A stretch of 21,384 nucleotides of DNA, from IMG/VR virus record IMGVR_UViG_3300025874_000119, positions 1 to 21,384 of that record, one strand, 5' to 3'. The number at the start of each line of letters is the position of its first letter. Position 1 is the first letter of the stretch. This document shows, piece by piece, positions 6,497 to 11,605 of the stretch. The stretch is from a virus. The position numbers and the translations under genes are program-made. The notes under the pieces are model-generated. The model saw only the letters and a program-made list of their open reading frames with translations. It was not told where the DNA came from and ran no database searches.

Positions 6497-6524
6497 AATA
6501 TATACCTTTGTTAATATAATCGAC

Positions 6525-6554
6525 ATTATACCACAGATCGCAGTACAATGTCAA
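6525..6554 (-). promoter_or_regulatory. Sigma70-like promoter for the gp47 unit
   Basis: Minus strand TTGACA (6549-6554), 18 bases, TATAAT (6525-6530) preceded by TGTGG. It begins 13 bases after the 3' end of the tRNA-Arg gene and serves the 75-aa gene and gp47. Confidence 0.8.
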
Positions 6555-6653: not shown

Positions 6654-7277
6654 CTATACCATATGATCACTGAGATCAGAATCAACATTGACTGCACGTC
6701 TCTTACGTTGTTTCTTCTCTTCTTTCGCATATTCTTTAAAGTCGGCATCTGCGTTCTTTACTACATCAATACGTTGTCTGAGTTGATCAACAAATGGGAG
6801 TACATTACTATAGTCAGTGAATCCGTTGTCATCATTCAAATCTAGGAACTGCTCGATACCCGCCTCTGCGATATACTTCATCTTGATATCTTGTTGACGT
6901 TTCTCACGTTGGATTCTGCGGAGGAAGGCGTACCACGTAATCTGTGTGAAGTATGCGAATGCATTTGGTTTACCAGATCGTGTTGCAGCCTCTAGGTTGT
7001 AGTTCTCGATCGCCTTTAGACAGTTCTCTACCGCATCCATTACCATCTCTTCACGGTAAGTGTATCGGACAAAGTTCGCCTTGTGGGACAATCCTTCACT
7101 AATCTTTAGGAAACAACTGGCAATGTAATCCGGAACAATGGGTTTCGGTTTCCCTGCTTCCTTACACATTCGTGCATGACTAACATAAGTCACGACTGCC
7201 TGAGAGAACTCAGCGTTGTTTACGTAATGCGGTTTTTCTTTAGGTTTAACTTTTTTCATATCAGGTTTAACTTTCAT
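6654..7277 (-). CDS. 55: Late-transcription sigma factor, gp55-like
   Basis: 207 aa, against 185 for T4 gp55, the highly diverged sigma70-family factor that directs host RNA polymerase to TATAAATA late promoters together with gp33 and the gp45 clamp. HYVNNAEFSQAVVTY matches T4 YNYVNNKELLQAIIDW. The region-2-like block then follows: KISEGLSHKANFVRYTYREE, MVMDAVENCLKAIENYN, PNAFAYFTQITWYAFLRRIQREK, parallel to T4 [20 protein letters not shown] and [20 protein letters not shown]. The C-terminus is very basic (KEEKKQRKRR). It has its own sigma70-like promoter. Three TATAAATA sites within the window are its expected targets. Confidence 0.93.
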   Translation of the reverse strand: MKVKPDMKKVKPKEKPHYVNNAEFSQAVVTYVSHARMCKEAGKPKPIVPDYIASCFLKISEGLSHKANFVRYTYREEMVMDAVENCLKAIENYNLEAATRSGKPNAFAYFTQITWYAFLRRIQREKRQQDIKMKYIAEAGIEQFLDLNDDNGFTDYSNVLPFVDQLRQRIDVVKNADADFKEYAKEEKKQRKRRAVNVDSDLSDHMV

Positions 7278-7302: not shown

Positions 7303-7331
7303 ATTATAACACACTTCCGCTGAGAAGTCCA
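7303..7331 (-). promoter_or_regulatory. Sigma70-like promoter for gp55
   Basis: Minus strand TGGACT (7326-7331), 17 bases, TATAAT (7303-7308) preceded by TGTGT. The -10 is perfect and the -35 matches TTGACA at four of six positions. Confidence 0.7.
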
Positions 7332-7334
7332 GCG

Positions 7335-7742
7335 CTAAATTTCACACACTCGTCTTCGTAGATCACTAGAACTAAATCGATGGTCTCTACGGTTGAAGTG
7401 CAAGTCTATATCACGTTTACGACATATGTCCTTACCAGTGAAATCTTGATCCCTATACTCGTCACCAAGTATTCTGACATCAATACTGTACATATTAAGA
7501 ATGTCCTCTAGATCTTCTTCACCCCCATATGGAATAATCTCATCAACGTAACCAACTGCCTTGAGTTGTGCGTACCGTTCGACTACCGTCTGGATAGGTT
7601 TGTTTTTGCCTTTACGGCCAGAAGGATCCACTTGCAACCCACAGATAAGGTAGTCACAGTGATCTTTTGCTTCTCTCAACATCGACACATGACCAGCATG
7701 TAATAAATCAAATGCGGAACATGTAAATCCAATCTTTTTCAT
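7335..7742 (-). CDS. Cytidylyltransferase-like nucleotidyltransferase
   Basis: 135 aa, the length of TagD-type glycerol-3-phosphate cytidylyltransferases. The nucleotide-binding motif HAGH is at residues 15-18 in GFTCSAFDLLHAGH, and the second family motif is at 124-131 (SSSDLRRR, in place of the RTxGISTT type). The family joins a nucleotide (usually CMP) to a phosphorylated alcohol or sugar; the substrate here is unknown. RILGDEYRDQDFTGK fits the core sheet of the fold. It precedes gp55 on the same strand. A weak promoter (CTGACT-N17-TATTAT on the minus strand) may lie upstream, overlapping an opposite consensus promoter. Confidence 0.85.
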   Translation of the reverse strand: MKKIGFTCSAFDLLHAGHVSMLREAKDHCDYLICGLQVDPSGRKGKNKPIQTVVERYAQLKAVGYVDEIIPYGGEEDLEDILNMYSIDVRILGDEYRDQDFTGKDICRKRDIDLHFNRRDHRFSSSDLRRRVCEI

Positions 7743-7760
7743 AATTATCTCATTAATCGC

Positions 7761-7789
7761 TTGACAGAAGTTGCGGGCATCTGTATAAT
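7761..7789 (+). promoter_or_regulatory. Perfect-consensus sigma70 promoter with no downstream gene
   Basis: Plus strand TTGACA (7761-7766), 17 bases, TATAAT (7784-7789), preceded by TG. It lies in the 83-base gap between two minus-strand genes and points into the antisense strand of the 7826-8254 gene. No plus-strand frame with a ribosome site follows; the first ATG is immediately closed by TAA. Confidence 0.7.
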
Positions 7790-7825
7790 AGAAGCACTTC
7801 TTCTGCCAGTCAGTATATGTAAAAT

Positions 7826-8254
7826 TCAGTGAACTGTTTTCTCTGGATCTGGAAACTGTAATACATTACTATTATTAGAGTCTCTACCCATACTATTCAG
7901 TACTCTATCGTAAATGTCCTCTGAAGTCATACCTTCTTCTTCATCAGCCATCATCCTATTTTTTTCGACTGCACTGATTGAGTATAGGTACTGTTTCATC
8001 ATTGTAGGACTTGGGTAAGTAACGGATACCACATGTATTGATTTCAAGATAACATAAACTTCCGGATCATCTTGATACGTCATGTAGGTTCGAAACGAAT
8101 GGTACCGTGTACCCTCTTCGTCAATATCCGTTTGAAGCTTCAACGCACGTCTTATCACTAGATCATATTCATCTTCCTCGATGATCTCACACAAGACTTC
8201 TTCTCCTGTAGACAACTTAATATGTTTAATGTCATACGGATTCAATTCACTCAT
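7826..8254 (-). CDS. Hypothetical protein, possible Sm-like N-terminal fold
   Basis: 142 aa from the ATG at 8254; a GTG codon directly upstream is in frame, but the GGGA ribosome site fits the ATG. The N-terminal block (HIKLSTGEEVLCEIIEEDEY, then DLVIRRALKL) has the strand-G-E-strand pattern of Sm/LSm-type beta barrels, and VYVILKSIHVVSVTYPS could complete the barrel. The C-terminal half is acidic and ends NVLQFPDPEKTVH. I know such proteins only as conserved unknowns in T4-like marine phages. It overlaps the end of uvsW by eight bases, so translation is probably coupled. An antisense consensus promoter lies just past its 3' end. RNA binding would be an inference from the fold only. Confidence 0.75.
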   Translation of the reverse strand: MSELNPYDIKHIKLSTGEEVLCEIIEEDEYDLVIRRALKLQTDIDEEGTRYHSFRTYMTYQDDPEVYVILKSIHVVSVTYPSPTMMKQYLYSISAVEKNRMMADEEEGMTSEDIYDRVLNSMGRDSNNSNVLQFPDPEKTVH

Positions 8255-9743
8255 CACTTTTCCCTTTCAAGTTTATAGGATAAATCTTATGTCTAAACTT
8301 CTCTTTATTATATATCTTTATTCTTTCTGCACTGTGGCGCAACGTGAAATTCTTATACGTTGTTGTGTGTAGGTCATCAGCAATGTCAAACAACTTGGTC
8401 GTTGCATTGTTGTCAGACTTTCTCAGTCCTCGTCCGATCGATTGGAGAACTTTGACTTGAGACTTTGAAGGACTTGCAAACACAATATTGTGTAGGTTGC
8501 GAATATTAATCCCAGTGCTAAAAGTCCCCATACTAGCGATAATAATTCCATCATCTTGACTCTCCACGATGCCTCTAATTTGTTCCCGATCGGCGGCATC
8601 GACCTCACCAGAAACGTAAAATACCTTACGGTCTTCTTTTGCTTTGTTGCGTACCGCCTCGAATAAGACCTTACCGTGTTTCTCGACAAACTGGAATAAC
8701 ACCAGAGTATTCCCTTTTTGGGATAATGCGAGATTTGTTACAAAGCGAACTCTGTCTTCATTAGTTACTATATAGTCGATCTCTTCCTGATAGGTTTTGC
8801 CTTCCATCATTGCACAGATGTCGTTATGGTACCGCAGTAACAGGACTGATATATCCAGATCCGCCAAGGTTTGACTTTCCATTAGTTTTACGGTGGTAGT
8901 CACCGTGAATACGGGGCCGAATAAACCTTCCAGTACTAATTTGTTTGTCTCAGTACCATCTAGTGTACCAGTCGTACCCCATCTATATTCAGCATTGACA
9001 CACTTGTCCATCATCGTAGATAGAGACTTTGCCTTAAATAGATGTACCTCATCCCCAAACACAGAGTCGAACTGCGTAAACCACTCTGGGGGGAATCTGT
9101 AGATAGATTGCCATGTAGATACGATGATTCTCTTATCTGTTACCTTCTCCTTACCGGAGTAGATACGATGTACATTATTCTGTACATCATAACCATAGTC
9201 TTCAAAGTCTTTGTACATCTGTTCCACTAGACTTGTAGTGGGAACAATAATGAGTGTCTTACCTTCGGTTCGTTCTTGAACCCATCGCATCAGATTATAG
9301 ATGATGAATGACTTACCTGATCCTGTCGGAGATAACAGTAACGCTCTCTTCTCTTCTATACCGTGGACGATTGCGTCATACTGATAACCCCGTGGTTCGA
9401 ATGGTGGTTCGTAGTCTTTGAGTTCTTTCATCAAAGATGGGTGGTCAACCTTGTTCTTAATCTCTGGATGACCAAACTCATCACTGTCCATCAACTGTAA
9501 CGGGTAGTACCTATCTGCACAGAATTTCTTCAGATGTTTGTACAGTCCAACAGGCAACGTCTTAGTCACCATGTTGAATAGTTTAATCTTCCCGTCCCAC
9601 CGTCTTGCCTTAAACGCTGGCATAAACTTGTGGCCAGGCACAAAGAACGAGAAGTAATCTCGTAACTCTTGCGCTTGATGTGCATTACACTGCACCATTA
9701 ATAGTGAGTGACTCTGCAATCCTATGGTAATGTTGTTATCCAT
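8247..9743 (-). CDS. uvsW: Recombination DNA-RNA helicase UvsW
   Basis: 498 aa, against 503 for T4 UvsW, an SF2 helicase that unwinds R-loops and branched DNA and drives the switch from origin to recombination-dependent replication. After an N-terminal domain of about 110 residues (PGHKFMPAFKARRWDGKIKL), the helicase motifs follow: the Q-motif region RGYQYDAI near 118-125, Walker A SPTGSGKS at 138-145, DEVH at 231-234, TGTLDG near 259-263, GTFSTGINI near 406-414, and QSIGRGLRKS at 434-443. The start overlaps the end of the glutaredoxin gene by eight bases. T4 uvsW is expressed late; no TATAAATA is seen directly before this gene. Confidence 0.95.
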   Translation of the reverse strand: MDNNITIGLQSHSLLMVQCNAHQAQELRDYFSFFVPGHKFMPAFKARRWDGKIKLFNMVTKTLPVGLYKHLKKFCADRYYPLQLMDSDEFGHPEIKNKVDHPSLMKELKDYEPPFEPRGYQYDAIVHGIEEKRALLLSPTGSGKSFIIYNLMRWVQERTEGKTLIIVPTTSLVEQMYKDFEDYGYDVQNNVHRIYSGKEKVTDKRIIVSTWQSIYRFPPEWFTQFDSVFGDEVHLFKAKSLSTMMDKCVNAEYRWGTTGTLDGTETNKLVLEGLFGPVFTVTTTVKLMESQTLADLDISVLLLRYHNDICAMMEGKTYQEEIDYIVTNEDRVRFVTNLALSQKGNTLVLFQFVEKHGKVLFEAVRNKAKEDRKVFYVSGEVDAADREQIRGIVESQDDGIIIASMGTFSTGINIRNLHNIVFASPSKSQVKVLQSIGRGLRKSDNNATTKLFDIADDLHTTTYKNFTLRHSAERIKIYNKEKFRHKIYPINLKGKSDE

Positions 9744-11084: not shown

Positions 11085-11576
11085 CTACCTCAGTTCAAAT
11101 GACGAAAATCTAAACTCCACGTTGAAGGTTAAGAATTGTACAGTCGATGTATTCGCCTGCAACTGTATAGAACTAATGTTTGTTGGTATACAGTCTTTAT
11201 ATAGGATCTGCGTATTGGAGTTGTTATGACTCGTTAAGATACTTACCACGATATCCTGATACGGATTAAATTGGGCATCAGTGTTAGATGTCTGAGGGGA
11301 GTTGATCGTTCCCTCTAACCAAGACTGCATCTCTTTATATGATGTCATGTTCTCGTCCAGTATAATATCCAAGGCAAGACTACCGTATGTGATCTTGTCA
11401 CCCGCTAATGGAATAGACGTTATGCGTGGCGTACCAAGTTCTAACGGAGAAACGGTAGAGCCCGGATGCGTCACACCCTGTGCAAAGTACTCAAGGTTCG
11501 GGTAATTTTGCCTACTAATTATAACACGAAACCCAGTAGGTTGCAAGTAGTTTTTGTTTGTTGTTAGTTCTGCCAT
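11085..11576 (-). CDS. Tail tube-fold protein, gp19/gp54-like
   Basis: 163 aa. It shares the fold pattern of the tail tube protein encoded at 19685-20212: GFRVIISR start, an EMQSWLEG helix near 85-92, then YKDCIPTNISSIQL and TFNVEFRF at the end, parallel to FRGCFPTNVSEIAL and TVEFAIQY in gp19. T4 gp54, the tube initiator on the baseplate, has a similar block (FTGCIPISVSAPEL). It may be a tube initiator, a terminator or a baseplate component; position after gp23 and before uvsY is where cyanophages have a tail completion gene. Exact late promoter TATAAATA lies 22-29 bases before the ATG, and GGAG seven bases before it. Confidence 0.75.
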   Translation of the reverse strand: MAELTTNKNYLQPTGFRVIISRQNYPNLEYFAQGVTHPGSTVSPLELGTPRITSIPLAGDKITYGSLALDIILDENMTSYKEMQSWLEGTINSPQTSNTDAQFNPYQDIVVSILTSHNNSNTQILYKDCIPTNISSIQLQANTSTVQFLTFNVEFRFSSFELR

Positions 11577-11597: not shown

Positions 11598-11605
11598 TAT
11601 TTATA
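11598..11605 (-). promoter_or_regulatory. T4-type late promoter
   Basis: Exact TATAAATA on the minus strand, in the gap before the gp19-like tail gene. It is the octamer recognised by the gp55 form of RNA polymerase. Confidence 0.85.

What the first reader, a model, noticed from the sequence alone, without database searches (positions are those of the whole stretch)
7761..7825. Perfect sigma70 promoter pointing antisense into late-side genes
TTGACA-N17-TATAAT with an upstream TG is the strongest promoter in the window together with that of gp46, but on the plus strand it faces no gene: the next features are the minus-strand Sm-like gene and uvsW. It could make an antisense RNA that holds down those genes early, or a short non-coding RNA, or mark a lost plus-strand gene. 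Its neighbour may be an Sm-like protein, which makes an RNA link tempting.
Basis: partly seen in the sequence, partly recalled or inferred. Interest (0 to 1): 0.58.

Follow-up and report, generated by a model that had tools for sequence, protein, structure and literature searches.

The report
Conserved antisense promoter behind uvsW block
Marine relatives of phage T4 keep a near-perfect promoter just past the end of their uvsW gene block that points backwards into it and serves no gene, so they probably make a non-coding antisense transcript that helps to time their late genes.

Summary
The promoter is real: TTGACA-N17-TATAAT at 7761-7789 (+), one of three 12/12 matches in the window (0.01 expected). 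The TG abuts the -10, so it is not an extended -10. It serves no plus-strand gene, and it is no accident: among 223 uvsW-anchored loci of marine T4-like phages (107 representatives), 93 of 107 have an antisense promoter of at least 11/12 there, against 14 of 2140 shuffles and 0 of 107 control stretches inside uvsW. Cultured cyanophages (Syn9, S-RIM2, S-RIM8, S-T4) and pelagiphages (HTVC008M, Mosig) have it. It persists when an inserted gene separates it from gp55's promoter (19 of 22; sense promoter 0 of 22). No plus-strand ORF is conserved. A Watson-Crick inverted repeat centred on the predicted start follows the -10 in 47 of 102 (shuffles 5%; gp55-direction promoters 2 of 51), with 23 different arms. 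Best reading: a host-sigma70 early promoter whose antisense transcription restrains the late uvsW block in cis. That it fires, and what it does, are inferred; no RNA data were available. A T4-type R-loop origin is disfavoured.

The parts
7761..7789 (+). antisense sigma70-type promoter, TTGACA-17-TATAAT
   Evidence: conserved in relatives
7790..7804 (+). inverted repeat AGAAG-CACTT-CTTCT directly behind the -10, centred on the predicted start (about 7796)
   Evidence: sequence; repeat and its 23 arms across relatives; start inferred from the usual 7-base distance
7826..8257 (-). Sm-like protein gene (143 aa), last gene of the uvsW block, first gene overlapped by the antisense transcript
8247..9743 (-). 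uvsW helicase gene, antisense to the promoter
7335..7742 (-). nucleotidyltransferase-like gene inserted between the antisense promoter and gp55; absent in C48C1
7303..7331 (-). promoter-like site before gp55, TGGACT-17-TATAAT with TGn (10/12)
6654..7277 (-). gp55 late sigma factor gene
11598..11604 (-). ATAAATA, late-promoter-like site upstream of the ORF at 11085-11576, a possible start of the block that runs to uvsW
   Evidence: the number in the window is what chance gives (4 against 4.3)

Best explanation
The site is a host-sigma70 early promoter kept at the 3' end of the uvsW gene block and pointing back into it. Early in infection the unmodified host polymerase would start at about 7796 and make an untranslated antisense transcript across the Sm-like gene and uvsW. 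That convergent transcription would hold down, in cis, leaky expression of the late block, which includes the R-loop helicase UvsW. When gp55 takes over the polymerase, the antisense start falls silent and the late block, with any gene added behind it such as the nucleotidyltransferase, is expressed. Shown here: the promoter sequence, its conservation and position, the lack of a gene, the start-centred repeat, and its persistence after the gene insertion. Inferred: that it fires, when it fires, and that it represses. I put about 0.9 on a working antisense promoter and about 0.45 on early repression in cis as its purpose.
For: 93 of 107 representatives with at least 11/12 in the fixed stretch, against 14 of 2140 shuffles and 0 of 107 antisense stretches inside uvsW; 96 of 107 in the whole interval to gp55. 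More often near consensus than the gp55-direction promoter in the same stretch (93 against 53 of 107). Kept after insertion of the nucleotidyltransferase gene: antisense 19 of 22, sense 0 of 22. Position mostly 25-46 bases past the last stop codon of the block, also where other genes end the block. No conserved plus-strand ORF. Cyanomyoviruses lack T4's alt, modA and modB and are thought to use unmodified sigma70 polymerase early (PMC2984593, passages); T4 UvsW comes from a late promoter and removes origin R-loops (PMC3016281, passages). In L349, L353 and L372 the same module sits antisense 22 bases past the stop of another block with a structural-type ORF.
Against: No transcript data. The late status of this block in this phage is by analogy; ATAAATA sites in the window are at chance number. 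The promoter tracks the block end, which suits a boundary role equally well. The same promoter-plus-leader module also drives ordinary sense genes such as Syn9 gp88, so it is not specific to antisense use. Three of 107 representatives lack it (L154, L279, L330), so it is not indispensable. The start-centred repeat is not explained by this model.
Confidence: 0.5

Rival explanations
1. Boundary or roadblock element: polymerase loaded on the antisense promoter stops late transcription at the end of the uvsW block, or keeps the late block and the gp55-gp47-gp46 block apart. The antisense RNA is a by-product.
For: The promoter sits at the end of the block whichever gene comes last and often lies back to back with the gp55 promoter. 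No intrinsic terminator-like site was reported in this gap of the window on the minus strand.
Against: Genes are inserted behind it with no consensus sense promoter of their own in the scanned stretch (0 of 22), so sense read-through past the site seems to be needed for them.
Confidence: 0.2
2. Replication origin of T4 type: the transcript primes DNA synthesis as an R-loop, as at oriF and oriG (middle promoter plus AT-rich unwinding element) or oriE (early promoter), next to the gene for the helicase that removes such R-loops.
For: Orphan, consensus, early-type promoter beside uvsW and uvsY; T4 origins depend on promoters and UvsW removes their R-loops (PMC3016281, passages). A start-centred repeat could hold strands apart.
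Against: Downstream DNA is not AT-enriched (0.62-0.67 against 0.644 in uvsW); from +50 to +100 the RNA would be G-poor (skew -0.45) and purine-poor (0.37), the opposite of R-loop-prone RNA. No GC-skew switch at the locus in C48C1 or Syn9.
Confidence: 0.1
3. The antisense RNA pairs with the 3' end of the late mRNA and protects or processes it (RNase E shielding, as proposed for another cyanophage).
For: The transcript would overlap the end of the mRNA; antisense protection from RNase E is cited for cyanophages (PMC10976474, passages; the primary paper is not held).
Against: It would have to be made together with the late mRNA, while the promoter is of host type; no conserved RNA structure or sequence was found.
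Confidence: 0.1
4. Chance or relic: a consensus match without function, or the promoter of a lost plus-strand gene.
For: No plus-strand gene follows today.
Against: Conserved in marine T4-like phages with UvsW identity down to about 50%, with no plus-strand ORF conserved anywhere.
Confidence: 0.03

Closest known systems
CfrI, antisense RNA of cyanophage S-PM2 at psbA
   Same: Antisense transcription in a T4-like cyanophage (PMC2984593, passages; PMC5931967, passages).
   Different: CfrI links psbA and a homing endonuclease gene in S-PM2; the present promoter is at the uvsW/gp55 boundary of a whole phage group, and no transcript has been shown for it.
T4 replication origins oriF, oriG and oriE
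   Same: A promoter whose transcript matters for something other than its protein, in the same functional neighbourhood as uvsW and uvsY (PMC3016281, passages).
   Different: No AT-rich unwinding element, G-poor transcript, no GC-skew switch.
Convergent promoters and transcriptional interference in temperate phages (for example P22 sar, lambda paQ, phage 186; recalled, from no call)
   Same: An antisense start lowers expression of an opposing unit in cis.
   Different: Here it sits at the far 3' end of a late block in a lytic T4-like phage, and interference is inferred only.
N4 virion RNA polymerase hairpin promoters (recalled, from no call)
   Same: A short variable-sequence inverted repeat tied to a start site.
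   Different: Here the repeat lies behind a full sigma70 -35/-10 and is centred on the predicted start; no N4-type polymerase was looked for.

Membership tests
Sigma70 (housekeeping) promoter | -35 TTGACA and -10 TATAAT 16-18 bases apart | tested here: met
   12/12 with spacer 17; conserved in relatives
Sigma70 (housekeeping) promoter | mapped transcription start | not testable with these tools
   no RNA data held
Extended -10 promoter | TGn directly before the -10 | tested here: not met
   TG abuts TATAAT without the n
cis-antisense RNA | promoter facing the opposite strand of an annotated gene, with no gene of its own | tested here: met
cis-antisense RNA | detected transcript overlapping the target | not testable with these tools
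   no RNA data held
T4-type R-loop origin | promoter followed by an AT-rich unwinding element | tested here: not met
   AT 0.62-0.67 in 50-base steps downstream against 0.644 in uvsW, 102 representatives
T4-type R-loop origin | nucleotide-skew switch at the origin | tested here: not met
   C48C1 and Syn9 show no extreme at the locus; skew is dominated by gene direction
T4-type R-loop origin | early DNA synthesis starting at the site | not testable with these tools
   needs nascent-DNA mapping
Sm/LSm-like protein (neighbour gene) | Sm fold | tested here: met
   model pLDDT 74, best PDB match 3by7 (Sm/LSm-like), TM 0.85 over the target, rmsd 1.9; Pfam Sm_like hits the cyanophage homologue (2.7e-45), not the window protein; profile comparison 95%
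Sm/LSm-like protein (neighbour gene) | RNA binding | not tested
   no assay; ring surface not analysed

The most novel reading that the evidence does not exclude
Marine T4-like phages carry an undescribed kind of block-end switch: a consensus sigma70 promoter aimed backwards into the late block, with a DNA-level inverted repeat centred on its start that keeps Watson-Crick pairing while its letters change freely. The repeat (possibly a hairpin in the melted strands) tunes this start, and the same module is used at other late-block ends, so these phages time late genes by antisense transcription at block ends as well as by late promoters.
Probability: 0.25. Interest if true: 0.82.

Novelty: new variant of a known kind. 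Interest (0 to 1): 0.62.

Why it matters
T4 delays UvsW with a late promoter. If its abundant marine relatives also use a built-in antisense start, closer to consensus more often than the promoter of their own late sigma factor, then antisense transcription is a core part of their programme and not a curiosity of one phage. It gives a fixed place to look in strand-specific RNA data of Syn9-type infections, and a compact element (promoter plus start-centred repeat) that can be tested in a reporter plasmid.

Tried and rejected
Plus-strand gene: no conserved ORF starting 8-60 bases behind the start (median of the longest 25 codons, scattered lengths). Structured RNA: plus-strand RNAs of the window and C48C1 fold no better than shuffles (z 0.60, 0.25, -0.11); Rfam gives only two tRNAs at gathering threshold and chance-level matches with lax thresholds. 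Sense-strand terminator made of the repeat: allowing G-U pairs on either strand adds no excess over Watson-Crick and no U-run follows. Origin: skew in C48C1 and Syn9, composition. By-product of a divergent pair: rejected because the antisense promoter stays when the nucleotidyltransferase gene separates the pair. Literature searches found no report of this promoter; most subscription papers are not held, including those asked for by identifier, so absence from print is not established.

Rows dropped before counts: of 251 uvsW loci, 15 without a detectable Sm gene, 11 with the Sm gene running off the contig, 2 with under 75 bases behind it; 107 representatives were kept of 223, and 102 of these 107 (promoter of at least 10/12 with the -10 ending 5-50 bases past the stop) entered the repeat and composition tests.

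Full report
What is there. The plus-strand sequence 7761-7789 is TTGACA-N17-TATAAT. Three perfect sigma70 matches occur in the 21,384-base record (4261 and 6554 on the minus strand, 7761 on the plus strand); shuffles give 0.01. The record is a whole virus record of a T4-like phage; its nearest named relative in the phage collection is Phage C48C1 (Kyanoviridae; 69% identity over 35% of a 7-kb query). The promoter lies in the 83-base gap between a nucleotidyltransferase-like gene (7335-7742, minus) and the Sm-like gene (7826-8257, minus), upstream of which come uvsW and uvsY. It points against them. The next substantial plus-strand ORF is 3.9 kb away and has its own promoter-like site.

It is conserved. 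In C48C1, which lacks the nucleotidyltransferase gene, the same place holds TTGACG-17-TATAAT towards the Sm-like gene and, back to back, a perfect promoter towards gp55. I collected uvsW-anchored loci with three UvsW queries (C48C1, S-RIM2, HTVC008M; best 80 each) and added named phages: 251 loci, of which 223 could be examined and 107 remain after removing similar regions. In a fixed stretch (the last 30 bases of the Sm gene and up to 160 bases behind it), 93 of 107 have an antisense promoter of at least 11/12 (47 of them 12/12). Controls: 14 of 2140 shuffled stretches and 0 of 107 equal stretches antisense inside uvsW; over all 223 loci 196, against 1 of 223 in that control. Scanning the whole interval to gp55 gives 96 of 107. 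Of the other 11, eight have 10/12 matches near the right place (L135, L249, L253, L257, L259, L260, L315, L336) and three (L154, L279, L330) do not. Cultured phages with it include S-RIM2, S-RIM8, ACG-2014d, ACG-2014f and S-T4, Syn9, HTVC008M (12/12) and Mosig (12/12, spacer 16). It is absent from Stenotrophomonas phage Marzo, where only 11 bases separate the Sm-like gene and gp55. A T4-type phage and Vibrio phage K571 have another gene order there and were not scanned.

Position. The -10 ends mostly 25-46 bases past the last stop codon. A natural experiment separates its two neighbours: with gp55 next, 71 of 81 representatives have the antisense and 51 of 81 a sense promoter of at least 11/12; with the nucleotidyltransferase gene next, 19 of 22 have the antisense and 0 of 22 the sense promoter in that stretch. 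The antisense promoter is thus kept for its own sake and not as half of a divergent pair. Where further genes follow the Sm-like gene (L158 and L164, L160, L170), it sits 28, 27 and 5 bases past the last of those (L159 carries the same promoter but its last ORF ends earlier), so it marks the end of the block and not the Sm-like gene.

The start. The predicted start is about 7796. Directly behind the -10 lies an inverted repeat, in the window AGAAG-CACTT-CTTCT (7790-7804), with the predicted start in the loop. Of 102 representatives with a promoter of at least 10/12, 47 have Watson-Crick arms of at least 4 bases starting 0-2 bases behind the -10 (37 exactly at 0), against 5% of shuffles; gp55-direction promoters in the same gaps show 2 of 51, and offsets outside 0-2 give 0-5 of 102 (with a wider start range 48 of 102 against 11% of shuffles, and control stretches elsewhere gave 7-23%). 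There are 23 different arms, and all four Watson-Crick pairs occur at each of the first four positions, for instance AACGG/CCGTT and AGCGG/CCGCT, or GGACT/AGTCC and AGACT/AGTCT, within one clade. Letters change while pairing stays. Because the left arm lies upstream of the expected start, the plus-strand RNA cannot fold this hairpin; G-U pairs on either strand add no excess. I read it as a DNA-level feature tied to initiation. Template-switch repair of near-palindromes is another possible cause (recalled, from no call).

What it does not make. No conserved plus-strand ORF; no better fold than shuffles; no Rfam family. From +50 to +100 the transcript would be G-poor (skew -0.45) and purine-poor (0.37). 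That disfavours a stable R-loop and would suit Rho-dependent termination where the host has Rho (inference). The composition may simply mirror the acidic tail of the Sm-like protein.

Other copies of the module. The exact cyanophage form (promoter plus AACACTGYCAGGGTTGA) occurs in 30 IMG/VR stretches: 18 at the uvsW/gp55 boundary and 12 elsewhere. Of the 12, three (L349, L353, L372) are again antisense, 22 bases past the stop of a 109-codon ORF that follows a long structural-type ORF (582 codons or more); nine lie before small sense ORFs, among them Syn9 gp88. So the start region is a promoter module that is also used for genes. C48C1 has 11 minus-strand promoters of at least 11/12 against about 2 expected, eight of them in or beside the structural and packaging clusters; Syn9 has 5 against 2-3.

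Mechanism. The best reading is early antisense transcription by host sigma70 polymerase into a late block that ends with uvsW and the Sm-like gene, switched off when gp55 takes the polymerase. T4 practice supports the logic: UvsW comes from a late promoter and removes origin R-loops (PMC3016281, passages seen). Cyanomyoviruses lack T4's polymerase-modifying alt, modA and modB, so early genes are thought to use unmodified sigma70 polymerase (PMC2984593, passages seen). Firing, timing and repression are inferences. A boundary or roadblock role fits the position as well and is the main rival. An R-loop origin is disfavoured but not excluded.

Known or new. Antisense RNA in T4-like cyanophages is known from CfrI at psbA (PMC2984593; PMC5931967, passages), and antisense transcription in Kyanoviridae is mentioned in PMC10976474 (passages). 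My searches of the held library (listings and the passages named) found no report of this promoter or of the start-centred repeat; many relevant papers are not held. I class it as a new variant of a known kind.

Limits. The counts come from related genomes chosen by similarity to three UvsW proteins, and representatives are not independent. The start is predicted, not mapped. The late status of the block in this phage is by analogy; ATAAATA sites are at chance number (4 against 4.3), though all four lie on the minus strand and one lies just upstream of the ORF at 11085-11576.

Noticed in passing
L173-L176 (C48C1, OQ984149): 11 minus-strand promoters of at least 11/12 against about 2 expected, eight in or beside structural and packaging genes; one (12459) lies in the gp19/gp20 gap pointing back into gp19. 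Conservation in relatives was not tested.
   Followed up: partly
L349, L353, L372: The same promoter-plus-leader module lies antisense 22 bases past the stop of a 109-codon ORF behind a long structural-type ORF: a second block end with the same layout.
   Followed up: partly
Syn9 123733 (minus, L344) and 52741 (plus, L347): Two promoters of one phage share the first transcribed bases (AACACTGYCAGGGTTGA); one is antisense at uvsW/gp55, the other drives gp88.
   Followed up: partly
window 6520-6554: The perfect minus-strand promoter at 6554-6525 sits in an inverted repeat that also reads as a 10/12 promoter on the plus strand (TCGACA-18-TACAAT).
   Followed up: no
window 7335-7742: Nucleotidyltransferase-like gene comes and goes between the antisense promoter and gp55 in relatives, without a consensus sense promoter of its own in the scanned stretch; about 70% DNA identity to genes of Vibrio phages.
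   Followed up: partly
L275-L343 (relatives of Pelagibacter phages Mosig and HTVC008M): Many of the Mosig-like loci use a 16-base spacer, often with TTGACT, for the antisense promoter where the others use 17, and several show direct rather than inverted repeats around the start.
   Followed up: no
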